DNA of 43,485 nt from Cryobacterium lactosi (GTDB lineage Bacteria; Actinomycetota; Actinomycetes; Actinomycetales; Microbacteriaceae). This document shows, one piece after another, positions 7,387 to 40,485 of the stretch. Each line of letters starts with the position of its first letter. The first letter of the stretch is position 1. Where the stretch lies: contig NZ_SOHM01000017.1 of assembly GCF_004403945.1 (NCBI RefSeq), positions 1 to 43,485 on the forward strand. The letters run 5' to 3'. The notes under the pieces are model-generated. The model made no database searches. It had not been told where the DNA came from and was given only the letters and a program-made list of their open reading frames with translations. The position numbers and the translations under genes are program-made.

Positions 7387-7667
7387 GTGACGAAGCTGAT
7401 CGGCCACGCGCGCGTATCGACGCGCCAGCAGCCCCCGACCGGCAAGAGGTGGATCTTTTGGCCGCTGGTGTCCGACGTGATGACCTCTACGTCGACAACA
7501 GCGTTTCCGGCGCTCGAGCGCCTCGAGGCCGGACTTCGATCGCGCGCTCAACGCCCTCGAGGCCGGCGACACTCTCATCATCACGACTCTGGACCGGCTG
7601 GGGCGATCGACACAGAACATGCTCTGCGGTCGATACACAATGAATGTCGAGGTCAGCGTTGGCTAAT
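7387..7667 (+). pseudogene. truncated, frameshifted serine recombinase (resolvase/invertase)
   Basis: Three frames together give the N-terminal catalytic domain of a Pin-type serine recombinase. KLIGHARVSTRQQ carries the catalytic Ser. EVDLLAAGVRRDDLYVDNSV follows in the next frame, and RPDFDRALNALEAGDTLIIT plus TLDRLGRSTQNML in a third. Two frameshifts, near 7432 and 7530, and loss of everything after the LDRLGRS region make it inactive. It abuts the 3' end of the AbiEii gene, so arrival of the toxin-antitoxin cargo may have truncated it. An intact but different serine recombinase lies at 40882-41463. Confidence 0.8.
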
Positions 7668-8583: not shown

Positions 8584-9685
8584 CGGTCGTTTCCTCTTCG
8601 GTGGTCGGTTCCTGGCCGCGGCGTGACTCTCCAGCGCCTGGATCTTTGGGCGCGATGGCGGAGGACGCGGGCACTGCGTGTGTCGTGGTCATGATGGGGA
8701 CAGCCCCGCCGAAGTTCATGGTTGGAACCGAGATCTTCGGCATCGTGAAGGTAGGCATCTGGTCCGCGATTCCCTTGGTGATCTGCTCCATCTGCTCCCG
8801 ATGGAGTTCCAGGAAGGGGGACGGCACGGCGTCCGCGATCCCGGAAGCCAGGCGACTCTGCGCTTCTCTCACCGGCGCAAGCAGTTGTTCGAGCTGTTCG
8901 TTGAGCTGGGTGCTTCCATGCAGCTGGAACTGAAGCCGCTCAGCAAGGATCCTGAGCTGTTCCCCTGCTGCGCGGGTGATGACCTGCTCGAGGGCGGCGC
9001 CGACAGCGGGTCGCCGAATGAGCGCGAGAGTTGCGGTGACGTCGTCGATGCCGGCACTCCGGCGTATTTGTTCGAGAAGCGCCGTGCCGTCCCGTCGAGG
9101 ATGGCCGTACCTTGCCGCGAAAGGGGCAAGGAGAAGTCCTAGGTGATCCAGGTCGACGGCGCGCTCTCCTCGGGTTGCGTCGGCCAGAACATCCCCAACC
9201 AGGGAGAGGTCGCCCACCTCATCGACAAGATCAGCGACGGTGCGCTCAATGCTCGTCACCGGGAGACCCTCGACAACGACGACGTCTCGCGGTTCCAGTT
9301 GGCGACGCGAGTATGCGATGTCTGGTCGTTGGGTCTGGCGACGCTCGCTGGTGATCATCCGATACGGGGCTGGCTCGATATCGCCAGCCTCATGCACCGC
9401 GGCCGCAGCCGCACCGCCGATCACCACGTGCGGGTTCTCGAGCCGTTCCCAGGCCAGCAGTTCCGGAACAGTGGACATCCATGCGGCACGAAGATCATCC
9501 AGCGGTGCTACCGGAACGCCGCCGAGCCGGTACACGCCGTGAACGAGACGCTCCAGACGCCCATCCCGTTCCCGATGCGAGAGATTGGCTCGACTAACCC
9601 CGCGAGCCCTCGCCTGCGCGGCCGTGAACAGACCCCACTGGCCCGAGGCCAGTTCCTCCAGAATCGGCTCAACAATTACGCTCAT
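8573..9685 (-). CDS. abiEi: AbiEi-type antitoxin and autorepressor
   Basis: Antitoxin partner of AbiEii. 370 residues with an N-terminal winged-helix domain (residues about 15-50, GLFTAAQARARGVSRANLSH and RLERLVHGVYRL) and the AbiEi-type domain to about 200. The helical C-terminal region is longer than usual and ends in a low-complexity Pro/Glu/Thr tail. Family members bind inverted repeats in their own promoter; a matching perfect repeat lies at 9708-9722. The ATG at 9685 starts directly before the HTH. The pair could stabilise the plasmid and protect against phage. Confidence 0.85.
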   Translation of the reverse strand: MSVIVEPILEELASGQWGLFTAAQARARGVSRANLSHRERDGRLERLVHGVYRLGGVPVAPLDDLRAAWMSTVPELLAWERLENPHVVIGGAAAAAVHEAGDIEPAPYRMITSERRQTQRPDIAYSRRQLEPRDVVVVEGLPVTSIERTVADLVDEVGDLSLVGDVLADATRGERAVDLDHLGLLLAPFAARYGHPRRDGTALLEQIRRSAGIDDVTATLALIRRPAVGAALEQVITRAAGEQLRILAERLQFQLHGSTQLNEQLEQLLAPVREAQSRLASGIADAVPSPFLELHREQMEQITKGIADQMPTFTMPKISVPTMNFGGAVPIMTTTHAVPASSAIAPKDPGAGESRRGQEPTTEEETTDGK

Positions 9686-12500: not shown

Positions 12501-12908
12501 CTACAGCTCCACGTTGTCCGGCGGCATCGATGCGGGCACAATCCTGACCGTTCCGTTTTTGCGGCGGTGGAAGTGCCCTTGGTCGGGGTCGCAGTCGCGG
12601 AAGGGACCGTTTGACTTGTCGAAGATGACGGCGGCGTGGCGGTCCCAGTGGTTGATCCACCAGGACGAGACGGCGCCGGCGTCGCCGTCCATGACGCTGG
12701 CGTCTGCTTGCATGCTGGCGTGCCAGAGCGCTTTGAACCGGGCGACGACCTCCGGATGTAGCCACCATTGGTCGCACCACGGTGTCGGTTTAGTGCCGAC
12801 GACCTCGACGGTGCTGAGGTGGCTGGTTAACCAGTCGAGGAACATCTGGCGGACGTCAACCACATCCTCCCCAGTGTCGGCTGCGTCGTAGTCGTCGTAC
12901 TCAGCCAC
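12501..12908 (-). CDS. DUF4913 family protein of the conjugation operon
   Basis: 135 residues starting at GTG 12908, overlapping the coupling-protein stop by eight bases. The diagnostic DUF4913 signature is present: PWCDQWWLHPEVVARFKALW, SSWWINHWDRHAAVIF, then GPFRDCDPDQGHF. The family is found in actinobacterial conjugative elements next to VirD4-type genes; its biochemical role is not known. An acidic N-terminus (EYDDYDAADTGEDVVD) may contact the coupling protein. It is the last gene of the leftward operon in this window. Confidence 0.82.
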   Translation of the reverse strand: MAEYDDYDAADTGEDVVDVRQMFLDWLTSHLSTVEVVGTKPTPWCDQWWLHPEVVARFKALWHASMQADASVMDGDAGAVSSWWINHWDRHAAVIFDKSNGPFRDCDPDQGHFHRRKNGTVRIVPASMPPDNVEL

Positions 12909-14622
12909 GTGCTGCCGCTTCCGCTGCAGCGGTGCGGACGGGTGCCGGTGTCTTGGCCGGCGGGGTGCGGTTGATGGTGGCGGTAAGGGTTTTGTCGCGG
13001 AACCAGGGGACGGTGTTGACCATGACGGGCCGGCATTTGGAGCTGAACAAGACTGCGCGCCATTCAGGGAGGGAGCCGAGGGCGGCGATGTCGAGGGTGT
13101 TGACCTTGCGTGTGTTGGTCGACGTGGACGTGTGGCCGTCTTTGCCAGTGGAGCTGCCGTAGGTGATCTCGTCGTGTTCACCGATCAGCGCGGCAAGCGA
13201 CCGGAGGAAGTCATCGTCGCCGGATCCGCCGCCGAAGACGCGGGTAGCGGCGGCGTCCCAGAGAGTTTGCCAGCCGTCTTTGCCGAACGCGTCGATCGCT
13301 TGGGCGCGGGATTGGAAGTAGGAGTTCAAGATGATGCCCATCGACCCGTAGTAGGAGTACACCGAGGGCAGTTCTGGCCAGCGGACGATGTTGGCGCATT
13401 CGTCGAGTTCCATCACCAGCGGCACGGTGAGCCGGCCGCCGTTGCCTTGCGCGGCGTGCTCGGCGGTTTTGCAGATCGCACGGATGAGGGCGGTGAGGAT
13501 GGCGCCGCCGGATCCTTCGCCGTCTTTGGAGAGCAGCACGAGGGTATCGGTGCTGCGGATGAACTCGTCCGGATTGAATCGACGGACCCTATCGGCGCTC
13601 GTCCAGGCCAAGAGATCATCGTCAGCGAGGGCAGAAGCCATCCGCTGCGCGGTGGCGTAGACACTGCCCTTGGTCTTCTCGGGCCAGCTCAGGATGCCCT
13701 CGATTGTCGAGGACGGCCCGGTTTTCCCGTGCCGGGCGAGGATCCGCTGTACCTCGTGTCCTTCGGCGCGGGCGATCCAGGCGAATACCTGTGAGAGGGG
13801 ATCGTGCTCGAGCGCGGCGGCGAGGAAGAAATAGGCGAGCATGTCGCGGCCGGCGGTGTCGAACTGGGAGTCTCCGCCTCGGTCGGAGGCTTTCCGGGTG
13901 GAAGCTTCAAAGATGGCCGCGAGCTCGCGGGCGTCGGCTGCGCTCTGCACGTAGTCGAGCGGGTTGAAGACGAAGTCGGGGCGGGTATCTCGGCGGTAGA
14001 TGCGGTTGGGGTCGAAGATGAACGTCTGTCCGTGGCCGGCCCGGCCGGCGAGGGTTTCGCGAACGCCGTCGACCTTGTTGGACGTCATGATCGCCGCTCC
14101 CGGGGCTTCGAGCATGTGGCGGATGACCAATGCTGAGGTTTTGCCGCGGCCGGTGCCGCACACGTACACGCCCAAATCCCGCCATCCCTGATACACCCAC
14201 CGGTTCCCGCGGCCGACGAGCTGGCCGACCCGCTCCCCCGCCGGCAGGTTCACCGCGGCCGGGTGCAACTGCGCGGCTTCCTTCGTCCGGGCTGTTTCGC
14301 GCAACACGGCGGACTGTTTGCGCGTGGCCATGTGTTTGAGGGCGATGTTGTTGCGTTTGAGTGACGCCCGCTGTGCCTGCTTGGCCAGGACGAACGCGAA
14401 CACCGCCACCACGAGGACCAGTGCCACGAGGGACGTCCAGGTCGCGGCCGGCGGCCAGGGTGCGTCGAAGAAGAGGAAGTCGCCTGCCAGGGCGGCCGGG
14501 TTCCACGGGTACGTGACACCCGTGGGTGTGAGGGCGGCGCCGGCGTGCACGGAGACGAGCAACCCGAGGATGGTCATGAGGGCGAGGAGGCCGGTCATGA
14601 TGCGGGCTTTCCAGTCGATCAT
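12901..14622 (-). CDS. type IV coupling protein (VirD4/TraG-like ATPase)
   Basis: DNA-transfer coupling ATPase, 573 residues, which recruits relaxase-DNA and protein substrates to the secretion channel. Two membrane helices (about 10-30 and 62-80) are followed by a cytoplasmic motor. Walker A is CGTGRGKTSA (156-163). Walker B is VPLVMELDECANI, with a Q-rich segment SYFQSRAQAI after it. ATG 14622 follows AGGAGACTCCG. It is the eighth gene of the operon, just after the cell-wall hydrolase. A protein that selects substrates by C-terminal signals is of interest here because four proteins in the window share a tail motif. Confidence 0.9.
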   Translation of the reverse strand: MIDWKARIMTGLLALMTILGLLVSVHAGAALTPTGVTYPWNPAALAGDFLFFDAPWPPAATWTSLVALVLVVAVFAFVLAKQAQRASLKRNNIALKHMATRKQSAVLRETARTKEAAQLHPAAVNLPAGERVGQLVGRGNRWVYQGWRDLGVYVCGTGRGKTSALVIRHMLEAPGAAIMTSNKVDGVRETLAGRAGHGQTFIFDPNRIYRRDTRPDFVFNPLDYVQSAADARELAAIFEASTRKASDRGGDSQFDTAGRDMLAYFFLAAALEHDPLSQVFAWIARAEGHEVQRILARHGKTGPSSTIEGILSWPEKTKGSVYATAQRMASALADDDLLAWTSADRVRRFNPDEFIRSTDTLVLLSKDGEGSGGAILTALIRAICKTAEHAAQGNGGRLTVPLVMELDECANIVRWPELPSVYSYYGSMGIILNSYFQSRAQAIDAFGKDGWQTLWDAAATRVFGGGSGDDDFLRSLAALIGEHDEITYGSSTGKDGHTSTSTNTRKVNTLDIAALGSLPEWRAVLFSSKCRPVMVNTVPWFRDKTLTATINRTPPAKTPAPVRTAAAEAAARG

Positions 14623-26266: not shown

Positions 26267-26311
26267 ACGCGGCCACGCCACGCTCAGCTGGAGTGGGTGT
26301 GCGACTGCGGC

Positions 26312-26497
26312 TCAGTGCTGGAAGACGGCGAGGACCTCGGTGGCTAACGAGTTGGTGAGGACCCACGGTTGGTGCTTTTCGACGCCGGGACGCGGGTGAT
26401 GTAGCCGCAACCATCCTCGAATCGCTCGACCGTTATCGGTGTGGCCCAGTTGACGGGCTAGATCAATGGGGGTGGTCGTACTCTCGGTCGCCGGCAT
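26312..26497 (-). CDS. small conserved-looking protein, unknown
   Basis: 61 residues (MPATESTTTPIDLARQLGHT, RAIRGWLRLHHPRPGVEKHQ, PWVLTNSLATEVLAVF). The core RAIRGWLR-N-HPRP-N-PWVLT resembles a small domain seen in actinobacterial phage and plasmid proteins, but I cannot name it. It is convergent with the replication gene. Third-codon-position GC supports coding. Confidence 0.5.
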   Translation of the reverse strand: MPATESTTTPIDLARQLGHTDNGRAIRGWLRLHHPRPGVEKHQPWVLTNSLATEVLAVFQH

Positions 26498-26546
26498 GCC
26501 CGCAGCCTACCGACGCCACCACCTTCACAAACGCGAACCCTGTGGA

Positions 26547-26729
26547 GCCGCTTTGCGGCCGGCTTTGGTTCAGGCACTTTTTTGTCTGTCTGGCCGGTCA
26601 TCGTAGTTCGCTCCCGCGCCTGCGCCCACACTCTCGGACGCGGTCGCAGGCTCCCTTATTTCGCCCGAGACTGCGGGCACTTCGGCGCTTCCGCTCTCAA
26701 TCGATTCTCTTGCCAGACAGGCAAAAAAA
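26547..26729 (+). ncRNA. repeated structured element, copy 1
   Basis: Non-coding element found four times. It begins with a hairpin (GCCGC-TTT-GCGGC, 26547-26559). The long outer stem pairs 26578-26594 (TTTTTTGTCTGTCTGGC) with 26712-26728 (GCCAGACAGGCAAAAAA), 17 bp including one G-U. Inside are GCGCC/GGCGC and TCTCGG/CCGAGA helices and the conserved single strands GTAGTTCGCT, TATTTCGC and CTCTCAATCGATTCTCTT. Pairing is kept while sequence differs between copies. It ends 20 bases before the ATG of the 26750 gene. It may act as an RNA leader or as a folded single-strand promoter. Confidence 0.75.
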
Positions 26730-26749
26730 TCAGTTGAGCGGAGAGTCTC

Positions 26750-27403
26750 ATGTATCTGTCCCACGTCGTTGTCACCGGGCCTGTACGCAGCAGTGATGAC
26801 ATTGCAGCCGACCGGAAAGCCGCGAACGCGTTCTTCGCCCGGTACGCCATCCCGGGGTGGAAGACGGTTCGGGATCTGGAGCGGTTGGTGGAGTTCTACA
26901 GTTACGACTGGAATCTGGTGTGCTGTGTTCTCGATGCTCGGGTGTGGACGTTGGATCATGGCCACGACAACGCGGTAGCCCGCGTTCACGCCAAAGCTGC
27001 CCGGGCCTCGCTCCAAGCGATGGATGCGATTCCTGCCCGGGACGACTCGAAGCTGCGCCCGTACGTGCACTACACGACCACCCGGCGGATGCCCGCCCCC
27101 GGCCTGACAGCCAGCCCGATCGGCGAACGACTCACCGGGCGGCGCGAAGCGGCCCGGTTCTGGGCGCTGTGCCAGAACCCCACCCCTGTGTTCATCGACA
27201 AGGTCTTGCACGCGGGGCACCCCTTCACCAGGTGGGCCTTGTTGAACCCGGGCTACGGTCCCCTGCACGAGGCCCCGGATAACTACCAGGGCACCATGCG
27301 CACACCTAAAGAGCTGCGGTTCAGAAAGGGCACCATCCGCCCCGGCGGTATGAGCTACGACCGTGCCCTCGAGATCGCGTTGCAGGCACTGCCGGTCAAA
27401 TGA
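26750..27403 (+). CDS. unknown 217-residue protein behind structured element 1
   Basis: 217 residues starting MYLSHVVVTGPVRSSDDIAA; ATG 26750 follows GGAGAG. Mixed alpha/beta, no signal or membrane segment. Segments such as LERLVEFYSYDWNLVCCVLD, RREAARFWALCQNPTPVFID and GHPFTRWALLNPGYGPL look like a folded enzyme-type domain but match no family I recognise. As the first gene of a unit opened by the structured element and closed by the two-hairpin element, it is a candidate early-expressed leading-region protein. Confidence 0.75.
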   Translation: MYLSHVVVTGPVRSSDDIAADRKAANAFFARYAIPGWKTVRDLERLVEFYSYDWNLVCCVLDARVWTLDHGHDNAVARVHAKAARASLQAMDAIPARDDSKLRPYVHYTTTRRMPAPGLTASPIGERLTGRREAARFWALCQNPTPVFIDKVLHAGHPFTRWALLNPGYGPLHEAPDNYQGTMRTPKELRFRKGTIRPGGMSYDRALEIALQALPVK

Positions 27404-27414
27404 GTGCGGGCCGC

Positions 27415-27475
27415 GGCCGCCCCGTGACCGGGGCGACCGCGGGTGAGGGGCCCCCGCCCCCTCACACTCCCCCAC
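27415..27475 (+). terminator. two-hairpin 3' element, copy a
   Basis: A first stem, GGCCGCCCC with GGGGCGACC (27415-27438, one mismatch), is followed by GTGAGGGG/CCCCTCAC (27443-27465) and the tail ACTCCCCCACC. The same two stems and tail follow three other genes here. Position after the stop suggests termination or 3'-end protection; there is no U-tract. Confidence 0.6.
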
Positions 27476-27569
27476 CCCGGCAAGTTCTCCACAGGACCCA
27501 AAGCCAACCGTCACCCTGGCGGCGGCCCGGCTTAGCGTTCGAGGACCCGCTACTCGAAAGGACGCCCTT

Positions 27570-27929
27570 ATGCGCTTCATCAAACTTGCCGTGACCACCT
27601 ACGAGCACGACCGGACCCGCCCCGTGGTCGGCGCCGACGACGTGTGGATCAACCTCGACCAGGTTGTCTCCATCCAGGAGCAGCTGGACAGCAACACCTT
27701 CGCCGACGCCGTCCGGATGGGCATCACCCCAGAAGAGCACTACCCCTGCGTGGAGCTCAGCATGTCCAACGGCACCAGCCACCTGGTGTCCTTGGGGGTG
27801 TACGGCAGCCAGGCGGCGGGGTTTGACGCGATCGCCCGGTTCATGCCCGCCCTCATTAGCGCCGGCGCCACGACGGAGGACCAGTTCGAGCAGCTCCTGA
27901 CCGAATCGCCGTCGGTCAGGGCGAACTAA
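27570..27929 (+). CDS. unknown small protein (119 residues)
   Basis: Starts MRFIKLAVTTYEHDRTRPVV at ATG 27570 after GAAAGGAC. Alternating strands and a helix (VVSIQEQLDSNTFADAVRMG, YPCVELSMSNGTSHLVSLGV); cytoplasmic and acidic. No recognised family. It follows the first two-hairpin element in the same direction and is probably part of the leading-region gene set. Confidence 0.7.
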   Translation: MRFIKLAVTTYEHDRTRPVVGADDVWINLDQVVSIQEQLDSNTFADAVRMGITPEEHYPCVELSMSNGTSHLVSLGVYGSQAAGFDAIARFMPALISAGATTEDQFEQLLTESPSVRAN

Positions 27930-28174
27930 ACCAATCCCGCCGAGAACGCATTGGCCAGTTTCGTCGACCAACGCCGACCGCCAGGGTACGACTGCCTGCC
28001 GCGAAACCGAGGACGTTCTCCAGGAGTAACGTCTGCTCCAACCCGGCGTGACAGTCCCCCACTGCCACGCCGGGCCCACCCACGCAGCGACCCCAAGAAT
28101 TTGTGGCACGGAACCCTGGCAACGATGATGTCGAAAGCCTCAACCTGGACGCTTTGCGCGCGTGGGGAGCCGGA

Positions 28175-28408
28175 TCACCAAGCGAGACGGGGCGGGATCC
28201 ACCCCCACTGCGCCAAGAACTGCGTGGTCTTATCGAGCAGGCTCAGAAGATTCCGGGAAACCGAAATCACGGCCAGTGACCGCTCCAAGACCGTGAAGAA
28301 GACCGCAGAACGGCGCCCACCCGACCCCCGCGGACCCACACTCTCTGAAGCCCCTGAGGTATCGTGGCTGGCGTACTCGCTCATACCATTTGACAGATCG
28401 ATCGTCAT
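28175..28408 (-). CDS. possible small protein with strong ribosome site
   Basis: 77 residues from ATG 28408, which follows AAGGAGAATTG, a strong, well-spaced ribosome site. It begins MTIDLSNGMSEYASHDTSGA and has a hydrophobic C-terminal part (AVFFTVLERSLAVISVSRNL). No family recognised. The plus strand carries a competing 58-residue frame (28103-28279), so which is real is uncertain. The leader of this gene is covered by a possible plus-strand transcript ending at the 28466 terminator. Confidence 0.35.
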   Translation of the reverse strand: MTIDLSNGMSEYASHDTSGASESVGPRGSGGRRSAVFFTVLERSLAVISVSRNLLSLLDKTTQFLAQWGWIPPRLAW

Positions 28409-28465
28409 CAATTCTCCTTACGTGCAGTTTGGGTTATTGCGGATCGGTGAGTGCTTTCTTGGATT

Positions 28466-28497
28466 GGCCCCGGTTGCACCCGGGGCCATTTCTTTTT
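28466..28497 (+). terminator. intrinsic terminator, plus strand
   Basis: GGCCCCGG (28466-28473) and CCGGGGCC (28480-28487) form an 8-bp GC stem with a six-base loop, followed by ATTTCTTTTT. This is a textbook intrinsic terminator on the plus strand. No clear plus-strand gene ends here, so it may end a small RNA antisense to the leader of the minus-strand frame starting at 28408. Confidence 0.75.
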
Positions 28498-29076
28498 CGT
28501 ATGAAGTCGTTTCACACGAGTCGTTTCACAAGCACGTCGCCGTAGGCACAACGCTACGCGAACACGCCGACAGCAAAACGGTTCAAATGCTTCTCGTCAC
28601 GAATGAATGGTTTCCGGTCGGTGTGACCTAACTTTTGCGAAGTGTCCCCTAGCACCACGTGACCTCCGCCCCAGTCGGCCACGCGGAGGAATGGGTGCCG
28701 CGTCCTAAGTGCTCGTTTACGAGTGAGATTTGATTCACCCTGAAAGTGAAACGAACGACGTCTGAGCGCCGTTAGCAGCGGATTACTAAATGCCTGGTAG
28801 CGGAAATATTCGCTGTCGAATATTGCCTGAATACAGCCTGATCATTGTGTTGTTTACTCGATTCCCGGGCGTGTTGCGTGCGGTAGTGGGCGGACCGGCC
28901 ACGAAATGCGCCAACGAACACGTCGCCATGACCAGGTACCCGCCCCTAACGGGCCGTGACCGAACAGCGGCGCGGCCGCTGTACCCCTCCCCCAATTTGA
29001 GCCGCTGCGCGGCCGGGGCTATCAGAGTGACATCACTCTGAAACCAAGACGGCGCTGCCGTCACAAGCGAATCGGA
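28498..29076. other. long non-coding, repeat-rich region, candidate origin
   Basis: No gene was found in almost 580 bp. It holds a direct repeat AGTCGTTTCACA (28505-28516 and 28519-28530) with an inverted match GTGAAACGA (28746-28754). It also holds several inverted repeats: AATATTCG-CTGT-CGAATATT (28805-28824), ACAGCGGC-GCG-GCCGCTGT (28964-28982), GCCGC-TGC-GCGGC (29001-29013) and CAGAGTGA-CA-TCACTCTG (29023-29040). This density fits an origin of replication or transfer, or a single-strand initiation site. No nic site was identified. Confidence 0.5.
29023..29040. repeat. perfect 8-bp inverted repeat with CA centre
   Basis: CAGAGTGA (29023-29030) and TCACTCTG (29033-29040) are separated by only two bases, a geometry typical of recombinase or nickase sites and of dimeric repressor operators. 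It is the last of a row of hairpins just before structured element copy 2. Confidence 0.6.
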
Positions 29077-29258
29077 GCCGCTGCGCGGCACTGTCCAATG
29101 GGGCTTTTTGTCCTTTCTGGCGTTTCACCGTAGCTCCCTCCCGTGCCTCCGTCACCCAAATTCTCGGACGCGCCCTGCGGGCATATTTCGCCCGAGAATC
29201 CGTGCACTACGGCACTCCCGGTCGCTATCGATTTCTCTTGCCAGATAGGGCAAAAAAA
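29077..29258 (+). ncRNA. repeated structured element, copy 2
   Basis: The 5' hairpin is GCCGC-TGC-GCGGC (29077-29089). The outer stem pairs 29105-29121 (TTTTTGTCCTTTCTGGC) with GCCAGATAGGGCAAAAA (29240-29256), with one T-T mismatch and one G-U. The inner helix ATTCTCGG/CCGAGAAT is perfect over 8 bp, and GTGCC/GGCAC replaces the GCGCC/GGCGC of copy 1. Conserved loops GTAG, TATTTCGC and ATCGATTTCTCTT are present. It ends 25 bases before the ATG at 29284. Confidence 0.75.
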
Positions 29259-29283
29259 CAGTTGTTCAAGAGGAAGAGAACCG

Positions 29284-29436
29284 ATGGCTGAGACCGATTA
29301 CCCGTACGAGAACACCTACCCCGGGGAGCGCTACGCCAGCGGGTGCGCCTGCAGCGGTTGCCGGTCCGAAGGTGCCGCAGACACTCAGCCGGGCGAAACC
29401 TGCACCGCCACCCGTTGCGCCGACAGCTTCGCCTAG
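29284..29436 (+). CDS. 50-residue cysteine-rich protein behind structured element 2
   Basis: ATG 29284 follows AGAGGAAGAG. The acidic, aromatic start (MAETDYPYENTYPGERYASG) precedes five cysteines, in CACSGC (three), TC and TRC. They could bind one zinc ion. No family recognised. It lies 16 bases upstream of the DUF3560 gene and is probably cotranscribed. Small size leaves some doubt, but ribosome site, spacing and repeated context support it. Confidence 0.6.
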   Translation: MAETDYPYENTYPGERYASGCACSGCRSEGAADTQPGETCTATRCADSFA

Positions 29437-29452
29437 ATCGAGGGAAGAACTC

Positions 29453-30388
29453 ATGCTCACCATCACCCACACCCACGAAGCCGGAACGATGATCGATGGG
29501 ACCAGCCGAGGCGACGGAACCGCCGAAGTCCTCAAGTCCACCGGATGGCGCTGGGGCCGCAGCATCAGCGCTTGGTTCGTCCCCCAGTCCCGGGACCGCC
29601 TGCCGAAGCTGCACACCATCACCCGCACCAAGTCGGCACTTGAAGCCGCCGGGTTTGAGGTCACAACCGAAATCGACAACGGCCACCGCACAACCGCCGA
29701 CGTCGAGGCCGGAAAGATCGAGCGCCAGGCCGACCGGGTCGACGCCCTGGCCGCGAAAGCAGCGCGCAAGACCAGCGCGGAAGATGCCGCCTACGACAAG
29801 GCCCGCGCAGCGCTGGACCGGCTGCCCGAGGGAGGCGAGCCGATCAAGGTCGGCCACCACTCAGAAGGCCGCCACCGCAACGCGATCGCCAAAGCAGACA
29901 CGGCCATGCGTAAATCAGTCGAAGCCAGCGCAGAGGCCACCGTCGCCCAGGCCCGCGCCGACGCGGCCACCCACACCACAGACGCCCGTTACAACCCGGT
30001 CACCGTGGCCAACCGCATCGAAACGTTGGGCGCTGAGCTCCGCAAGCTCGAACGCCGCATAACCGCGCAGTGCTACGACGACACACGCGGCTACATCGAC
30101 GCCACCGCCGAGCAGATCCAGGCCCGCACGGCCCGCCTCGCTCCGCACCTCGACGAGAAGCGCGACCAGATCGCCTATTGGGAAGCCGTACGCGCCGCCC
30201 AGGTCGAAAGCGGCAAAGCCACCGGCTACGACCGCGCCACCGTCAAGAAGGGCGACCGGGTGAAGATCCGCGGCCAGTGGCGCGAAGTCGTGCGCGCCAA
30301 CCTCAAAACAGTCAGCGTCACCACCGGCTACACCTGGACCGACACCGCCCCATACGCCGAGATTCAGCAGCTCGTGCGGCCCGAGTAA
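29453..30388 (+). CDS. DUF3560 family protein
   Basis: 311 residues. The N-terminus (ITHTHEAGTMIDGTSRGDGT, STGWRWGRSISAWFVPQSRD) and the helical region with VDALAAKAARKTSAEDAAYD and EPIKVGHHSEGRHRNAIAKA match DUF3560, a family common on actinobacterial plasmids. A long coiled-coil stretch covers about 90-270, and a small beta domain (KGDRVKIRGQWREVVRANLK) ends the protein. The molecular role is unknown. It is the second gene after structured element 2 and is closed by a two-hairpin element 12 bases after the stop, so the unit is complete. Confidence 0.85.
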   Translation: MLTITHTHEAGTMIDGTSRGDGTAEVLKSTGWRWGRSISAWFVPQSRDRLPKLHTITRTKSALEAAGFEVTTEIDNGHRTTADVEAGKIERQADRVDALAAKAARKTSAEDAAYDKARAALDRLPEGGEPIKVGHHSEGRHRNAIAKADTAMRKSVEASAEATVAQARADAATHTTDARYNPVTVANRIETLGAELRKLERRITAQCYDDTRGYIDATAEQIQARTARLAPHLDEKRDQIAYWEAVRAAQVESGKATGYDRATVKKGDRVKIRGQWREVVRANLKTVSVTTGYTWTDTAPYAEIQQLVRPE

Positions 30389-30399
30389 TCCCGCCCCAG

Positions 30400-30453
30400 C
30401 GGCCGGCCCACCCAGGGCCGGCCGTGAGAGGGCACCCCCTCACACTCCCCCAC
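30400..30453 (+). terminator. two-hairpin 3' element, copy b
   Basis: CGGCCGGCCC and GGGCCGGCCG form a perfect 10-bp stem (30400-30424). It overlaps a second stem GTGAGAGGG/CCCCTCAC (30424-30443, one bulge), then the tail ACTCCCCCACC. It lies 12 bases after the DUF3560 stop. Same layout as copies a, c and d. Confidence 0.65.
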
Positions 30454-30526
30454 CAGCTGCAGCCGGCCCCGCCCGGCACCCACCCTCGAGAACGGTCCCG
30501 ACACAGGGACCACAGGAGATCCGGCC

Positions 30527-30964
30527 ATGATCATCACCTACCAACGCCCCGCCACGCTCGAGGCGCACCAGGTCGACCAGGACGCCCCCGCCGCCGACCT
30601 CAGCCCCACCGGGGCCACGTGCGGAACCACGACCGTCGACGTTATCGGGATCCCGTGGAGCTGCAGCCGAGCACCCCACCTCGGCCAGGACGAACACCGC
30701 GCCGCCATCACGGCCGCAGGCGACGGCCCGACCGGCGCCGTGGCCATCGCGTGGACGTACCAATACGCCACCGACGCGCAGCACGGCGACGTCGACCAGG
30801 CTGCCCCCACCCAGAGCATCACCGTCACCCTGTCGTTTCCCGACCGAGCTGCACACGGCATCAATGCGGCCGCGCTGATCCGAAGCATGGTCGACGCAGG
30901 ACTAGGCCACTTCTGGGAAGGCGACCAAGACGACGTAACCGCCAGCTCAACCGCCACCACCTGA
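30527..30964 (+). CDS. unknown 145-residue protein between two-hairpin elements
   Basis: ATG 30527 follows ACAGGAGATCCGGCC. The protein (MIITYQRPATLEAHQVDQDA onward) looks like an all-beta domain with a helix near the end (AHGINAAALIRSMVDAGLGH). No recognised family, no membrane segment. It sits between two-hairpin elements b and c as a single-gene unit. Candidate accessory or anti-defence protein by position only. Confidence 0.7.
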   Translation: MIITYQRPATLEAHQVDQDAPAADLSPTGATCGTTTVDVIGIPWSCSRAPHLGQDEHRAAITAAGDGPTGAVAIAWTYQYATDAQHGDVDQAAPTQSITVTLSFPDRAAHGINAAALIRSMVDAGLGHFWEGDQDDVTASSTATT

Positions 30965-30971
30965 CCGGTCG

Positions 30972-31026
30972 GGCCGACCCTCACGGGGTCGGCCGTGAGG
31001 GGGACGGCGCCCCCTCACACTCCCCC
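30972..31026 (+). terminator. two-hairpin 3' element, copy c
   Basis: GGCCGACCC and GGGTCGGCC (30972-30994) form a 9-bp stem that differs in sequence from copies b and d but pairs fully. A second stem GTGAGGGGG/CCCCCTCAC (30995-31018) and the tail ACTCCCCCAGG follow. Confidence 0.65.
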
Positions 31027-31062
31027 AGGTGAATCCGGCACGGAGGCCGTATCCACGCGGAA

Positions 31063-31249
31063 CCGGCTGCGCCGGCCTGACCTGATAGAACTTTTCTTCC
31101 CTTGGTGGCCGGTCATCGTAGTTCGCTTGCGTGCCTTCGTCACCCACAATCTGGCACGCGGTCGCAAGCTCCCTTATTTCGCACCAGATTGCGTGCACTA
31201 CGGCACTCCCGCTCTCAATCGATTTCTCTTGCCACCAAGGGCAGAAAAA
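31063..31249 (+). ncRNA. repeated structured element, copy 3
   Basis: The most informative copy for covariation. The 5' hairpin is CCGGC-TGC-GCCGG (31063-31075), where the others have GCCGC/GCGGC. The outer stem pairs CCCTTGGTGGC (31099-31109) with GCCACCAAGGG (31231-31241), fully changed yet fully paired, and extends through TTTTC/GAAAA. The inner helix is CAATCTGG/CCAGATTG. The conserved strands GTAGTTCGCT, TTATTTCGC and CTCTCAATCGATTTCTCTT are intact. It lies 77 bases upstream of the DUF3846 gene ATG; an in-frame GTG sits right after it at 31252. Confidence 0.8.
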
Positions 31250-31326
31250 CGGTGGACGACTACACAACCACTGCCCACGAGAGCCCGGGACCCCGCGTAT
31301 CTCACCATCCTTGGAGAGGGAACACA

Positions 31327-31749
31327 ATGACCACCACCACCATCCGCAGCGTCAAGATCAAACCGACCGAAACCATCACCACACTCGACCTGGACGGTCA
31401 GAACAGCGGAACGGATATAGCCGCCGCCATCGACTGCCGCATGTTTGCCGTTGTCGACCTGGCCGACGGCATCGACCTATTCGTGGACGATGAAGGACTC
31501 ATCAACGGGTCGACCCTGAACCTGCCCGCAACCGTGCTCGCCCACCTGCTCGGCAACCCGACCGTGATCTTTGGAACCGCCATCGCAGTCGGCACCACCC
31601 CAGACGGCAAAACCGTGGGGCTGACAGACCGCCAGCTCGCGCGGGTCCAGAAGTCATTCGCGCAGAAGCCCGACCCGGGAACCGTCGACACCCTCGTTGA
31701 GAGCCTGTCCCCGTTCCCCACGGTCGTGAGCATGCTCCGCAACATCTAG
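31327..31749 (+). CDS. DUF3846-like protein behind structured element 3
   Basis: 140 residues from ATG 31327, which follows GGAGAGGG; an in-frame GTG at 31252 is an alternative without a ribosome site. The central part (VDLADGIDLFVDDEGLINGS, TLNLPATVLAHLLGNPTVIF, GTAIAVGTTPDGKTVGLTDR) matches DUF3846, a family of small proteins on phages and plasmids with unknown role. It is followed at short distance by two more small genes in the same direction. Confidence 0.8.
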   Translation: MTTTTIRSVKIKPTETITTLDLDGQNSGTDIAAAIDCRMFAVVDLADGIDLFVDDEGLINGSTLNLPATVLAHLLGNPTVIFGTAIAVGTTPDGKTVGLTDRQLARVQKSFAQKPDPGTVDTLVESLSPFPTVVSMLRNI

Positions 31750-31767
31750 CGAACGGGAGGAAGAGCA

Positions 31768-31971
31768 ATGGCCACCATGAGCATCCAGACAATCGAGACG
31801 CCCATCACCAAAGGCGACGACGACACATGGAGCCGTACCCGTCAGCTCGCCAAGCGCAGTGAGGATCTGCACAACCACGCACAAGCCGGGTACACCCTGG
31901 CGCACACGGCAACGATCGACAGCGCCGGATAGGTGATCTTCGTCGACACTCTCACCCGCGTCAACGACTAA
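31768..31971 (+). pseudogene. small gene interrupted by in-frame TAG
   Basis: ATG 31768 follows GGGAGGAAGAG. The frame encodes MATMSIQTIETPITKGDDDT to ATIDSAG, then TAG at 31930-31932, then VIFVDTLTRVND and TAA at 31969. The downstream residues look coding, so a single substitution (for example CAG to TAG) may have truncated a 67-residue protein to 54. Readthrough is possible but unsupported. No family recognised. Confidence 0.5.
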
Positions 31972-31979
31972 CCATCCGG

Positions 31980-32001
31980 AGGGGCGGCCACGGCCGCCCC
32001 T
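31980..32001 (+). repeat. 10-bp GC hairpin between small genes
   Basis: AGGGGCGGCC and GGCCGCCCCT pair perfectly around a two-base AC centre, just past the TAA at 31971 and upstream of the next ribosome site. It may be an intercistronic processing or attenuation hairpin. No U-tract follows. Confidence 0.5.
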
Positions 32002-32023
32002 CCCCCAGCCGGAAGGCAACACC

Positions 32024-32140
32024 ATGACCGAACGATTCTCCGCCTGCGCGGGCCACCAGAGCTTGCACCGCATGGACGACTTCAACCGCGCCCTGTCAAT
32101 CGCCAAGAGCTGCCCCCAGTGCCTCGTCGAGGCCGACTAG
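32024..32140 (+). CDS. 38-residue putative zinc-knuckle peptide
   Basis: MTERFSACAGHQSLHRMDDF continues to AKSCPQCLVEAD. ATG 32024 follows GGAAGG. Cys-x2-His near the start plus CPQC form a plausible zinc site. Small zinc peptides of this kind are frequent on actinobacterial plasmids. It is followed after 16 bases by two-hairpin element d, marking the end of the unit. Function unknown. Confidence 0.55.
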   Translation: MTERFSACAGHQSLHRMDDFNRALSIAKSCPQCLVEAD

Positions 32141-32156
32141 CCAGAACCAACTGTCA

Positions 32157-32206
32157 GCCGGCCCTCGTGGGCCGGCCGGTGAGGGGCGACCCCCTCACAC
32201 TCCCCC
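32157..32206 (+). terminator. two-hairpin 3' element, copy d
   Basis: GCCGGCCC/GGGCCGGC (32157-32176) is followed by GTGAGGGG/CCCCTCAC (32179-32198) and the tail ACTCCCCC. It closes the element 3 transcription unit. Confidence 0.65.
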
Positions 32207-32263
32207 GGTAGGCGCGATAGCGAGAGTTGCCCGTTCTTCCAGGCGGATAATTAATGCATGAAA

Positions 32264-32375
32264 GACAGAAAGACAGAATGCAGGAATGATGGACAGACGG
32301 AATGCAAGCAGGAATCCTTGACAGAAGGAATGCAAGCAGGAATCATTGACAGAAGGAATGCAAGCAGGAATGATT
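32264..32375. repeat. 28-bp direct repeats (iterons) upstream of parA
   Basis: Three head-to-tail 28-bp units lie at 32292-32319, 32320-32347 and 32348-32375. Each starts GACAGA(A/C)GGAATGCAAGC and ends AGGAAT(C/G)(A/C)TT, with two to three differences between units. A shortened unit (32272-32291) and a GACAGAAA stub (32264-32271) precede them. 28 bp is between two and three helical turns. Position and tandem form fit a partition centromere bound by the ribbon-helix-helix protein at 33149, which could also repress parA. Confidence 0.85.
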
Positions 32376-32381
32376 GAAAGC

Positions 32382-33152
32382 ATGCAAATATTAATGGTCT
32401 ACAGCGAATCGGGCGGCGTCTCGAAAACGACTACCGCCGTATCGATCGCAATGACCGCCGCCGAGCAAGGCCGGCGGACGGTCCTGGTTGATCTTGACCC
32501 CCGTGCAGCAGCGACCAAATGGCTCGACGTCGCACCCTCCGGTGAAGGCCTCCACGTCGGCGCGATTCTCGGAGACGAAGACCCGCAAGGATGGGGCGAG
32601 GACTTGGCCGTGCAGTCCACCTGGTCAAAGAATCTCCGCGTGATTCCCTCCGCTCGCAACGTCTCCAACCGTGAGGCCGATCGAGCAGACCACGCCGAAT
32701 TGAGACTACGAACGGCACTTGTCGGTATCTCCGCTGACCTGGTGGTTATCGACTGCCCCAACAGGCAGGGCGGCCCGCTCATCCTGTCAGCCTTGAACGC
32801 TGCCGACTCGATTGTTTATGCCGCCACGGCCTCCAGTGACGGCGTGGACGGCGTTGCAGGCGCACGGCGCACTGTCGAACAGTTCCGCCTCAGCAGAACA
32901 CGCATCGCCGCACCCATCACGCTCTCCGAGGCCGGGATCGTCCTCGGCAGGGTACAAGAGACAATCCCCTCCCGCCCAGCCGTAGCCAGCACGGACGAGC
33001 TGCGCGCCACCGGAATGCTTCTCATGCCCCTAGTACCCGAAAGGGCCATCATTCAAGAAGTTCGCCTCACGGGGGAGTGGTACGGCAACTATAGAAAGGG
33101 CGCGCCCGTCGTGGCCGCGTACACCAAGATCGTGAACCAGGTGATTCGATGA
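32382..33152 (+). CDS. parA: ParA-type plasmid partition ATPase
   Basis: 256 residues. The P-loop is SESGGVSKTTTAVSIA. Compared with canonical KGGVGKTT, the signature lysine is Ser and the second loop Gly is Ser. I recall similar ESGGVTKTT-type loops in other actinobacterial plasmid ParAs. Walker A' is VLVDLDPRAAATKW and Walker B is LVVIDCPNRQGG. ATG 32382 is used; in-frame starts at 32346, 32358 and 32370 lie within the iterons and lack spacing for a ribosome site. The stop overlaps the next gene by four bases. Upstream iterons are the probable centromere. Confidence 0.85.
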   Translation: MQILMVYSESGGVSKTTTAVSIAMTAAEQGRRTVLVDLDPRAAATKWLDVAPSGEGLHVGAILGDEDPQGWGEDLAVQSTWSKNLRVIPSARNVSNREADRADHAELRLRTALVGISADLVVIDCPNRQGGPLILSALNAADSIVYAATASSDGVDGVAGARRTVEQFRLSRTRIAAPITLSEAGIVLGRVQETIPSRPAVASTDELRATGMLLMPLVPERAIIQEVRLTGEWYGNYRKGAPVVAAYTKIVNQVIR

Positions 33153-33472
33153 GCGACCAGCAGCAAGACCGACCAGACCTCAGCCGCCGCCGCAAGCCGC
33201 AGGCGGCACCCGACGAGCGCGTAGACCCGGTGGACTACCGCCAGAGTGCGCCGGTTCCTCAGGTCACGCCAGTGGCCTCGGAGCCACCCGCGGCTACGGC
33301 TGGCGCCGCACCGCGTCGCGGCCGGCCGCGCCGAGAGGCCACGGTGCCGTTCAGTACCCGGCTGGCCCCCGATGTTCTCGAACTCATCGACGCAGCTTCG
33401 GCCGCGGAAGACGGCGCAACGATCCGTAGCGTTGTCGAGGCCGCCATACGCGAGAAGTACCAAACAAAATAG
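33149..33472 (+). CDS. ribbon-helix-helix partition partner (ParB-type, centromere binding)
   Basis: 107 residues. The disordered, Pro-rich and basic N-terminal 65 residues include APRRGRPRRE. The C-terminal ribbon-helix-helix domain is ATVPFSTRLAPDVLELIDAA, then DGATIRSVVEAAIREKY. Translation is coupled to parA through an ATGA overlap. Small RHH proteins paired with ParA bind direct-repeat centromeres (type Ib partition), which fits the iterons upstream. The N-terminal tail may stimulate the ATPase. Confidence 0.8.
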   Translation: MSDQQQDRPDLSRRRKPQAAPDERVDPVDYRQSAPVPQVTPVASEPPAATAGAAPRRGRPRREATVPFSTRLAPDVLELIDAASAAEDGATIRSVVEAAIREKYQTK

Positions 33473-33515
33473 CCATGCAAGACGGTCACCGGCACGGAGG
33501 CCGGCTCCTAGAGGA

Positions 33516-33702
33516 GCCGCTGCGCGGCACTGTAGAGCCTGTGATGCTTGCACCTGTCTGGCCGTTCACCGTAGTTCGCTCCGCGCCTTCCATTCCAGGC
33601 TTTCGCGGCATATCCTCGCTCGCTGCTCTCGCTCCGGTATTCCACGACCCTGCACAACGGCACTCCCGCTCTCAATCGATTCCCTTTGCCAGACAGGCAC
33701 AA
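33516..33702 (+). ncRNA. repeated structured element, copy 4 (most divergent)
   Basis: The 5' hairpin is GCCGC-TGC-GCGGC (33516-33528). The outer stem pairs CCTGTCTGGC (33553-33562) with GCCAGACAGG (33688-33697), extended by TTG/CAA beyond a two-base mismatch. Strands CACCGTAGTTCGCTC and CTCCCGCTCTCAATCGATT are conserved, but the central helix region is replaced by unrelated sequence. It ends 29 bases before the redoxin ATG at 33732 and upstream of ssb. Confidence 0.7.
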
Positions 33703-33731
33703 AGAATTGTTGGTGGGGAAGGGACAGGGAC

Positions 33732-33962
33732 ATGAATGCGTCAGTGGTCGTCTATACGTTGCCGGAGTGCCAGCCGTGTCGAATGACGAAGATGAAGCTT
33801 GACCAGGAGAGCATCAGCTACGCGGTCGTCGACTTGTCCCAGGACGAAGCCGCGCTCGAGCACATACGGGCGCTCGGACACCTGCAGGCACCCGTCGTTG
33901 AGACGGCATTCACCAGCTGGTCCGGATTTCGACCAGAACTCATCACCGCACTTGCCGAATAG
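33732..33962 (+). CDS. NrdH/glutaredoxin-like redoxin (first copy)
   Basis: 76 residues of thioredoxin fold. VVVYTLPECQPCRMTKMKLD carries the CxxC redox pair, followed by ISYAVVDLSQDEAALEHIRA, the cis-Pro region APVVET and SGFRPELI. The SGFRP motif is typical of NrdH-redoxins, which reduce class Ib ribonucleotide reductase. It lies between structured element 4 and ssb, so it may support nucleotide supply during plasmid establishment. A second redoxin lies at 42183-42470. ATG 33732 follows GGGAAGGGACAGG. Confidence 0.85.
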   Translation: MNASVVVYTLPECQPCRMTKMKLDQESISYAVVDLSQDEAALEHIRALGHLQAPVVETAFTSWSGFRPELITALAE

Positions 33963-34008
33963 CTCGAAACCGTACCTAACCGCACAACCCATCGAAGGAG
34001 CAGAACCC

Positions 34009-34377
34009 ATGTCAATTCAGCGCACGATCACTGGGAACCTCGCCGCCGACGTCGACGTAGTGAAGGCTGGCAGTCTCAACATCACGAAATTTCGAGTCAT
34101 CGAGAACACGGGGGAGTACCGCGCCGGAAGGTACATGGAACACGTTGACGCCACGACGCATTTCGTTGAGGCCAAGTTCGAGCTGGGCGAGAACGCAGCG
34201 GCAACGCTCCACAAGGGAGATGCCGTGATTGTCGTCGGCCGAGAGCACACCAACAGCTGGGGCCCCGAAGGATCCAAGACCTACGGCCGCGTCATCGACG
34301 CCGACTACATCGGCGCCGAGCTCAGCCGCGCCGTCGCCCAGATCCGCCGCAACAGCAAGCCCGACGACCAGGCATAA
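34009..34377 (+). CDS. ssb: single-stranded DNA-binding protein
   Basis: 122 residues forming an OB-fold SSB domain: SIQRTITGNLAADVDVVKAG, FRVIENTGEYRAG, THFVEAKFELGENAAATLHK, GDAVIVVGREHTNSW. It lacks the long Gly/Pro tail and acidic tip of chromosomal SSBs, as is common for plasmid versions. ATG 34009 follows GAAGGAG. ssb genes in leading regions coat the incoming strand in the recipient; here the gene lies behind structured element 4, which strengthens the leading-region interpretation. Confidence 0.88.
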   Translation: MSIQRTITGNLAADVDVVKAGSLNITKFRVIENTGEYRAGRYMEHVDATTHFVEAKFELGENAAATLHKGDAVIVVGREHTNSWGPEGSKTYGRVIDADYIGAELSRAVAQIRRNSKPDDQA

Positions 34378-39409: not shown

Positions 39410-39646
39410 ATGACCGCTGGCTATGACGTTCAAGCGCTTTACCCCGGCCTGTTCGAGGGTGTCGACCCGGACCTGACGCAGCAGATCGCGAGCAACTTCG
39501 CGAGCGATGCGCAGGAAGGCTACGAGGCGACCCGGCGCGACGTCGAGCTGATGGTGCTCCTGTCCACGGACCAGATTTCCACCGAGCAGTTCAAGGCACT
39601 TGCGCGAGCTGAAATCGGGCTGCCGGCCTCGGACGTCGAAAGCTGA
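39410..39646 (+). CDS. VbhA-like Fic antitoxin (class I)
   Basis: 78 residues from ATG 39410, which follows GAAAGGG. The diagnostic class I inhibitory motif (S/T)xxxE(G/N) is present as SDAQEG (Ser32, Glu36, Gly37), followed by a helix YEATRRDVELMVLLSTDQIS and TEQFKALARAEIGLP, as in VbhA. The Glu would occupy the Fic active site and block ATP gamma-phosphate placement. The stop shares a base with the Fic start, so both are translated together. A possible promoter (TAAAAT -10) lies about 30 bases upstream. Confidence 0.82.
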   Translation: MTAGYDVQALYPGLFEGVDPDLTQQIASNFASDAQEGYEATRRDVELMVLLSTDQISTEQFKALARAEIGLPASDVES

Positions 39647-40485
39647 TGCCCCGCGCGGAGCAGTTCGATACGGCGTACCCGGACTTTCAATCGACGCTGT
39701 ATCCGCTCACGGAAACAGGCAACAAGCACGTCATGCGAAACACTGCGGGGATCCGCGACCCTGCTCACCTGCAGCGGCTCGAGAATTCTCTTTCCGGTGC
39801 TGCCCGCCGCGACATTCTGCGGGGCGCCATCCCGATCAACAAGACGTTTGACCTGGCTCACGCCAAGCAGCTGCACGCCGCTCTGTTTTCAGAGCTGTAC
39901 CCGAACTGGGCGGGCAAGGTGAGGCCGTTCGGAATGCACAAAGGCGGCGGTAAGCCATTCGCTCAGCCGAACCAGATCGAGGACTACTGGCGAAACGCCA
40001 CCGGCGCGATCCGCAACGCGGATCTACCCGCTCTGGGGCGCGATGACTTCGTGTCAACGCTCGCCAACGTTTACGCGAATATCAATCAGGCGCATTTCGG
40101 CCGTGAGGGAAACGGCCGGACAGGCAAGCTGTTCCTCGACCAGGTTGCCGAGCAGTCGGCATTCAAACTGGACCACCGCCTGATCGACAAGGCTGTGTGG
40201 AACGAACAGTCAGAGCGATCACGCCCCCCAGTCGGCTACCTCGCGGTTCGCCCGGCGGAGCTGGTGGCAGTGTTCGACAAGATCACGGTGGATCGAGTTC
40301 AGCCCGCGCCGGCCCAGACACTCCCGCTTAGCCCGGAGCTGCAGCGGATCATCGACGTGAACAAGCGGAATTTTCCGACGAGCGCAACGGCGATCATCCG
40401 GCCCGGGGAGGCAAGCCCGGCGGAGGGCCGGGGTTACCAGGCGCGGGGACAAGAGCGCAGCAACGATCAGGGATATGGGAGGTAG
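39646..40485 (+). CDS. fic: Fic-domain AMP-transferase toxin with C-terminal tail module
   Basis: 279 residues. The Fic core covers about 60-220, with FDLAHAKQLHAALFSELYPN and WAGKVRPF. The active-site loop HFGREGNGRTGK holds His150, Glu154, Asn156 and Arg158. Canonical HPFREGNGRxxR is altered: Phe is at position 2, Gly at 3 and Lys in place of the last Arg. Bacterial FicT-type enzymes adenylylate DNA gyrase and topoisomerase IV. The last 50 residues (PELQRIIDVNKRNFPTSATA to GYGR) are Gly/Arg-rich and shared with the 41460 protein at the same distance from the end, suggesting a secretion signal. Confidence 0.9.
   Translation: MPRAEQFDTAYPDFQSTLYPLTETGNKHVMRNTAGIRDPAHLQRLENSLSGAARRDILRGAIPINKTFDLAHAKQLHAALFSELYPNWAGKVRPFGMHKGGGKPFAQPNQIEDYWRNATGAIRNADLPALGRDDFVSTLANVYANINQAHFGREGNGRTGKLFLDQVAEQSAFKLDHRLIDKAVWNEQSERSRPPVGYLAVRPAELVAVFDKITVDRVQPAPAQTLPLSPELQRIIDVNKRNFPTSATAIIRPGEASPAEGRGYQARGQERSNDQGYGR

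What the first reader, a model, noticed from the sequence alone, without database searches (positions are those of the whole stretch)
26547..33702. Four copies of a ~185-bp structured element with compensatory base changes
Copies lie at 26547-26729, 29077-29258, 31063-31249 and 33516-33702, all on the plus strand and each 20-77 bp upstream of a gene. The outer stem is CTGTCTGGC/GCCAGACAG in copy 1, CCTTTCTGGC/GCCAGATAGG in copy 2, CCCTTGGTGGC/GCCACCAAGGG in copy 3 and CCTGTCTGGC/GCCAGACAGG in copy 4. The 5' hairpin changes GCCGC/GCGGC to CCGGC/GCCGG, and the inner helix TTCTCGG/CCGAGAA to AATCTGG/CCAGATT. GCGCC/GGCGC changes to GTGCC/GGCAC. Several helices keeping their pairing while sequence changes is strong evidence of selected secondary structure. 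Loops GTAGTTCGCT, TATTTCGC and TCAATCGATT are nearly constant. I do not recognise a named RNA class.
Basis: seen in the sequence. Interest (0 to 1): 0.93.

Follow-up and report, generated by a model that had tools for sequence, protein, structure and literature searches.

The report
Plasmid promoters made of single-stranded DNA
This bacterial plasmid carries four copies of a folded DNA element just in front of genes such as a glutaredoxin gene with a single-strand-binding-protein gene behind it, and the way the base pairs vary between relatives indicates that the fold is kept on the DNA strand opposite the gene message, so it likely lets those genes be switched on from the single strand that enters a new cell during mating.

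Summary
In detail: four copies (cores 26577-26730, 29104-29258, 31092-31249, 33545-33706, all +) with a covarying fold and no Rfam match. The implied RNA reading does not hold. Relatives occur in 64 of 398 Microbacteriaceae genomes, often several per contig, and on named plasmids. Among 131 copies, Watson-Crick pairs turn into A-C more often than G-T read on the gene strand (102 v 56), and into G-T more often than A-C on the other strand (127 v 59). RNase P, run the same way, behaves as a known RNA should (77 G-T v 14 A-C). So the fold appears selected on the template strand, not in the mRNA. In 19 of 19 plasmids or contigs examined that also hold a relaxase gene, all listed copies lie on the relaxase strand, as in F, which makes the template strand the inferred transferred strand. 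Best reading: a family of single-stranded-DNA promoters that works like Frpo of F but shows no sequence similarity to it. RNA polymerase use is inferred, not shown.

The parts
26547..26559 (+). 5' side hairpin of copy 1 (GCCGC TTT GCGGC)
   Evidence: sequence; similar hairpin before most of the 28 copies aligned
26577..26730 (+). copy 1, main imperfect hairpin (inner type A), 19 bases before the start codon at 26750
26750..27403 (+). gene after copy 1, 217 aa, no Pfam family
29077..29089 (+). 5' side hairpin of copy 2
29104..29258 (+). copy 2, main hairpin (type A), 25 bases before the start codon at 29284
29284..29436 (+). small ORF (50 aa, no Pfam family) followed by a DUF3560 gene, 29453-30388
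31063..31075 (+). 5' side hairpin of copy 3 (CCGGC TGC GCCGG)
31092..31249 (+). copy 3, main hairpin (type A), 77 bases before the start codon at 31327
31327..31749 (+). DUF3846 gene after copy 3
33516..33528 (+). 5' side hairpin of copy 4
33545..33706 (+). copy 4, main hairpin with a different inner domain (type B), 25 bases before the start codon at 33732
33732..33962 (+). glutaredoxin (NrdH-like) gene, followed by ssb at 34009-34377
32370..33152 (+). ParA-family gene between copies 3 and 4
12904..14622 (-). coupling protein gene of the transfer system (TraG-D_C), on the strand opposite the elements
27443..27472 (+). GC-rich hairpin GTGAGGGG..CCCCTCACACTCCCC after the gene behind copy 1; similar at 30995-31025 and 32179-32205; possibly a terminator

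Best explanation
The four copies belong to a family of ~155-base covarying hairpin elements in front of plasmid genes such as ssb units, ardC and parB, whose fold is kept on the template strand, and they likely act as single-stranded-DNA promoters. Proposed course: during conjugation the transferred strand (here the minus strand) would enter the recipient. Each element would fold into a long imperfect hairpin whose paired base (T-run/A-run plus a TTGnCC-like box) and internal bubble imitate a promoter. Host RNA polymerase would then copy the downstream genes (nrdH and ssb, DUF3560, DUF3846 and others) before the second strand is made. Shown: the fold, its covariation, the polarity of its wobble pairs, position, orientation and gene content. 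Inferred: T-strand identity in this plasmid, polymerase recognition, start site and timing.
For: Covariation: 26 of 38 pairs changed on both sides. Strand: 131 type A copies give WC>GT 56 / WC>AC 102 on the gene strand (p 3e-4) and 127 / 59 on the template strand (p 7e-7); the consensus fold is also deeper on the template strand (-93.7 v -64.5). All 12 random samples of 60 of the 131 agree on both strands (the samples overlap). Both A-C routes (G>A 55 v C>T 35; T>C 41 v A>G 17) are raised, so one directional mutation bias does not explain it; unpaired bases are purine-rich on the template strand (G 0.40, A 0.36). Control: RNase P 77 / 14 on its own strand, 15 / 63 on the other. Frpo, the known ssDNA promoter, leans the same way (GT/AC 4/8 on the gene strand, 10/4 on the transferred strand; neither significant). 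Orientation: in 12 of 12 actinobacterial plasmid stretches holding both (14 fetched), in contig C44 of the own genome, and in 6 of 6 contigs holding both from 12 further genomes, the elements lie on the relaxase strand; F has the same geometry. All 24 full-length copies in annotated stretches are followed by a gene on the same strand, 17 of them after 19-31 bases (my count). IncF plasmids put Frpo before a small ORF plus DUF3560 and before ssb, much as here; the DUF3560 proteins are homologous.
Against: No transcription data. The -10-like box (TAnnTC) lacks the last T of TATAAT, and the consensus scan finds no sigma-70-like site in the elements. The hand-drawn structure on 44 copies shows the bias in the inner helices (GT 8 v AC 24) but not in the outer stem (8 v 7). 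The 15 non-A copies show no significant bias (17 v 18; 18 v 11). Copy 4 folds no better than shuffles. The window's own contig has neither of the two relaxase domains searched. Some contigs carry copies in both directions; those checked have no relaxase domain, others were not checked. Chromosomal copies in one genus include divergent pairs. In pP27867_1 cargo seems to put ~89 kb between the presumed oriT and the elements (inferred). The plasmids share a backbone, so the orientation counts are not independent.
Confidence: 0.72

Rival explanations
1. A single-strand initiation site (ssi/sso type): the folded transferred strand is used mainly to make primers for the complementary strand, and lying near genes is secondary.
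For: The same strand and the same fold would be needed; [quoted passage not shown]
Against: Up to five full copies on one named plasmid (L016), each followed by a gene on the same strand; 17 of 24 lie 19-31 bases from an annotated start codon. Priming alone needs one copy and no gene spacing.
Confidence: 0.13
2. A cis-acting structured mRNA leader (riboswitch, attenuator or protein-binding leader) of the downstream genes.
For: Lies just before genes, folds well as RNA on the + strand (copy 1, z -4.3), covaries.
Against: Pairs break to A-C more than G-U on the message strand (102 v 56), the opposite of RNase P; the hairpin has its T-run on the 5' side and no terminator-like site lies in or right after a core; no Rfam match.
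Confidence: 0.07
3. An antisense RNA transcribed from the other strand of each element.
For: Wobble polarity on the template strand fits any molecule with that sequence, RNA included.
Against: The GT:AC ratio (127:59) is lower than for the RNA control (77:14; Fisher p 0.004); the consensus scan lists no sigma-70-like site on the minus strand in 26300-34100; it does not explain orientation relative to the relaxase.
Confidence: 0.05
4. A folded recombination or mobility site (attC-like) or a MITE spread as a repeat.
For: Multi-copy, imperfect palindrome, single-strand fold.
Against: attC-like R boxes (consensus recalled) at both ends in 0 of 146 copies on either strand; near-constant spacing to start codons and one orientation on the relaxase-bearing plasmids examined.
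Confidence: 0.03

Closest known systems
Frpo / ssi single-stranded-DNA promoters of F and other IncF and IncI plasmids
   Same: Several copies in the leading region, in IncF plasmids before ssb and before a small ORF + DUF3560 unit; long hairpin on the transferred strand; genes read toward oriT on the strand of the transfer genes; wobble counts leaning the same way, though not significantly.
   Different: No sequence similarity found; ~155 v ~310 bases; other phylum; weaker -10 box; highly conserved inner loop; RNA polymerase use not shown here.
Frpo-like candidates of Samuel et al. 2024 (PMC11541004; passages seen)
   Same: Candidates before leading-region genes, with UP, -35 and -10 parts in the stem.
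   Different: Found by BLAST to Frpo or by consensus boxes and fold; the words Actinobact/Actinomycet do not occur in the main text, although one island shown is from Streptomyces sp. DJ (figure not held, so whether it bears a promoter mark is unknown to me).
Single-strand origins (sso) of ICEBs1 and rolling-circle plasmids
   Same: A folded single strand used by host enzymes to start synthesis (start of the abstract of PMC4595007 seen; mechanism recalled).
   Different: Not placed before each gene (recalled).

Membership tests
Frpo/ssi single-stranded-DNA promoters | Located in the leading region before ssb / anti-defence genes | tested here: met
   ssb or NrdH+ssb, ArdC, DUF3560, ParB units follow copies; oriT itself was not mapped, and cargo can intervene before it
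Frpo/ssi single-stranded-DNA promoters | Oriented so that the transferred strand is the template | tested here: met
   relaxase strand in 19 of 19 plasmids/contigs holding both; T-strand polarity rests on the usual lagging place of the relaxase (passage) and on the F geometry
Frpo/ssi single-stranded-DNA promoters | Stable hairpin on the transferred strand | tested here: met
   z -3.8, -3.6, -3.9 for copies 1-3, but +0.46 for copy 4; wobble polarity
Frpo/ssi single-stranded-DNA promoters | -35 and -10 boxes rebuilt in the fold | tested here: inconclusive
   TAnnTC in 142 of 146; a hexamer with at least 4 of 6 TTGACA bases 15-19 upstream in 84 of 142 v 12% in shuffles; spacer 16-18 in 138 of 142, ties set toward 17; no consensus site by scan
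Frpo/ssi single-stranded-DNA promoters | Sequence homology to Frpo | tested here: not met
   profile searches both ways give one chance-level hit each (E 2.2 and 5.1)
Frpo/ssi single-stranded-DNA promoters | RNA polymerase transcribes the single strand; early expression in recipients | not testable with these tools
   needs experiments
cis-regulatory structured RNA (mRNA leader) | Pairs tolerate G-U on the message strand | tested here: not met
   56 GT v 102 AC; RNase P control 77 v 14
any Rfam family | Score above the gathering cut-off | tested here: not met
   0 matches in the window; two chance-level matches in 26500-33760, neither in a copy
integron attC site | R boxes RYYYAAC / GTTRRRY at the ends (consensus recalled) | tested here: not met
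   0 of 146 on either strand

The most novel reading that the evidence does not exclude
Conjugative plasmids of Actinomycetota evolved their own family of single-stranded-DNA promoters, independent of Frpo, repeated before each establishment operon (with a GC-rich hairpin at the end of several of those units), so that the incoming strand itself carries a coordinated first-response regulon.
Probability: 0.6. Interest if true: 0.82.

Novelty: new variant of a known kind. Interest (0 to 1): 0.76.

Why it matters
As far as the papers seen here tell, single-stranded-DNA promoters rest on one family from enterobacterial plasmids (Frpo/ssi) and on look-alikes found by its sequence or boxes. A second, sequence-unrelated family in Gram-positive actinobacterial plasmids would suggest that early expression from the transferred strand arose more than once, would give a model with over 100 natural variants, and would mark the establishment genes of a poorly known plasmid group. 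The wobble-polarity test also offers a general way to tell a structured RNA from a structured single DNA strand by sequence alone.

Tried and rejected
RNA leader, antisense RNA, attC-like site and MITE: see rivals. The TPP riboswitch as control (29 of 30 stored loci used) gave too few informative changes (4 GT v 4 AC over 15 pairs), so it neither supports nor refutes the test; it was replaced by RNase P (28 of 30 stored loci; two dropped for short flanks). A genome-contig scan for an Frpo word found nothing, so Frpo copies were read from F and eight IncF plasmid records instead (22 distinct copies, few changes, not significant). A direct assignment of the -10 box stayed inconclusive. A class-wide search found the family in 3 of 394 genomes, all of the window's genus, so it is concentrated in Microbacteriaceae; one full copy is on an Arthrobacter plasmid. 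For the 131 + 15 set, 177 hit places were reduced to 146 unique full-length copies; partial and duplicate ones were dropped, and type A was set by a loop motif. Literature: searches listed no paper describing this element; I saw listings with the starts of abstracts, and passages of two papers; the library lacks most subscription papers and preprints.
Full report
Observation. Each has a small 5' hairpin, then after 14-17 bases a long imperfect hairpin, with a T-rich 5' base facing an A-rich 3' base (least clear in copy 4), followed by a start codon on the same strand after 19, 25, 77 and 25 bases. Copies 1-3 share an inner hairpin with a related loop (type A); copy 4 has another inner domain (type B) inside the same outer frame. 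Folded as single-stranded DNA of the minus strand, copies 1-3 beat all 200 shuffles (z -3.8, -3.6, -3.9) and copy 4 does not (z +0.46).

Family. A covariance model from 18 type A copies found matches in 64 of 398 Microbacteriaceae genomes (62 of 350 of high quality; 29 of 85 genera), often several per contig, and in 3 of 394 genomes drawn from the class, all of the window's genus. Full-length copies on named plasmids come from Cryobacterium, Mycetocola, Clavibacter, Curtobacterium and Arthrobacter; a Leifsonia and a second Arthrobacter plasmid gave only partial matches. The window is contig C43 of its genome; contig C44 holds three further full copies and C21 one weak one.

The fold is selected. 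On 44 copies (chosen from 69 full-length gene-strand matches) aligned by MAFFT without structure, the hand-drawn structure pairs in 86.9% of cells (shuffles 70.4%, slid partners 38-53%), with both-side changes in 26 of 38 pairs and a covariation score of 0.402 against 0.130. Several pairs take three or four Watson-Crick states.

The fold is kept on the template strand. If the working molecule is the mRNA, a pair in transition should pass through G-U on the message strand; if it is the complementary strand, it should pass through G-T there, which reads as A-C on the message strand. With one pipeline (MAFFT, RNAalifold, FastTree, parsimony) RNase P from 28 genomes of the same family gave 77 GT v 14 AC on its own strand and 15 v 63 on the other. 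The element gave 18 v 40 on the gene strand and 41 v 22 on the template strand with 44 copies, and 56 v 102 and 127 v 59 with 131 type A copies. With the hand structure the bias is in the inner helices (8 v 24, p 0.007) and absent in the outer stem (8 v 7); over all it is 16 v 31 (p 0.04). The 15 remaining copies were not significant (17 v 18; 18 v 11). A TPP-riboswitch control was uninformative (4 v 4). In 12 random, overlapping samples of 60 copies the direction held 12 of 12 times on each strand; both routes to A-C are raised; complementary transition rates in unpaired columns, divided by base content, differ by about 20% or less (my arithmetic); and unpaired bases are purine-rich on the template strand (76%), as in RNase P (69%). 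Frpo copies lean the same way (4 v 8 and 10 v 4, not significant). The p-values treat inferred changes as independent.

Place and orientation. 14 actinobacterial plasmid stretches were read; 12 hold an annotated relaxase, and in 12 of 12 the element matches are on the relaxase strand, whether the relaxase is MOBF or of the MOBP/MobC kind, leaving aside the weaker matches of the same palindromes read backwards. In the other two no relaxase lies in the stretch; the transfer genes are on the strand opposite the elements there, as they are in the twelve. Contig C44 of the own genome agrees. Of 12 further genomes searched for two relaxase domains (12 of the 64 positive, picked by me), six contigs hold both, and all copies listed on them agree (G279:C41, G115:C5, G383:C2, G358:C2, G155:C30, G397:C3). 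Contigs with copies in both directions among these 12 genomes (G141:C18, G078:C10, G155:C34, G205:C2, G011:C4, and G193:C3 with a match cut by the contig end) hold neither domain; further mixed contigs in other genomes (such as G319:C1, G028:C1 and G103:C5) were not searched for relaxases. These plasmids share a backbone, so the 19 are not independent. F shows the same geometry: leading genes and first transfer genes on one strand; relaxase genes typically enter last (passage in PMC11541004). Hence the template strand is inferred to be the transferred strand.

Genes. Genes directly behind copies, or in the unit they open, include NrdH with ssb, DUF3560, DUF3846, ParB, ArdC-like, DprA and unknowns. 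In 24 of 24 full-length copies in annotated stretches a gene follows on the same strand: 17 after 19-31 bases, 6 after 74-82, one after 195 where a small ORF annotated in relatives is not annotated (my count). In IncF plasmids Frpo copies precede ssb and a small ORF + DUF3560 unit; the window has a small ORF + DUF3560 behind copy 2 and glutaredoxin + ssb behind copy 4, and the two DUF3560 proteins align at 30% over 114 aa (E 6e-10).

Mechanism. Samuel et al. (passages) and Couturier et al. (passages) describe Frpo as a hairpin of the transferred strand that rebuilds promoter boxes. Here the T/A-run could be the UP part, TTGnCC at the stem base the -35 and TAnnTC in an internal bubble the -10: TAnnTC occurs in 142 of 146 copies, a hexamer with at least 4 of 6 TTGACA bases lies upstream in 84 of 142 (12% in shuffles), with spacer 16-18 in 138 of 142, ties set toward 17. 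This is suggestive only; copies are related and the -10 is weak. What reads the conserved loop is unknown.

Comparison. It works like Frpo in place, orientation, fold and gene content, while the boxes are inconclusive and no sequence similarity was found. It is therefore not filed as a member of the Frpo sequence family but as a new variant of the ssDNA-promoter kind. No Rfam family fits. In the searched library no description was found (listings).

Caveats. No expression data; the window's own contig has neither relaxase domain searched; oriT was not mapped and cargo can lie between it and the elements; chromosomal and mixed-direction copies are unexplained.

Noticed in passing
window 27443-27472, 30995-31025, 32179-32205; also L009, L010, L011, L012, L014, L016: A repeated GC-rich hairpin GTGAGGGG..CCCCTCACACTCCCC, without a T-run, lies on the element strand after genes of the units that the elements open; possibly a terminator. 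Not found by the same pattern in L013, L015 and L047-L052.
   Followed up: partly
window 32280-32377: A 28-base tandem repeat (3.5 copies) just before parA holds two adjoining TTGACA-17-AATSAT promoter-like sites.
   Followed up: no
L066-L075 (contigs of one genus, g56, mostly chromosome-sized): Weaker copies scattered in these contigs precede an unknown 134-aa family, ArdC-like and ParB-like genes, sometimes as divergent pairs; no TraG found in three of the four genomes.
   Followed up: partly
inner loop of type A copies, alignment A3: The inner loop comes in two main exchangeable forms (GGTCGCAAGCTCCC or GCCC-loop-GGGC) between near-constant ends ACGCG and TTATTTCGC; the core alone is conserved on more distant plasmids.
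   Followed up: no
window 7666-9685 (-) and 39646-40485 (+): AbiEi/AbiEii-type and Fic-domain genes on the same contig.
   Followed up: no
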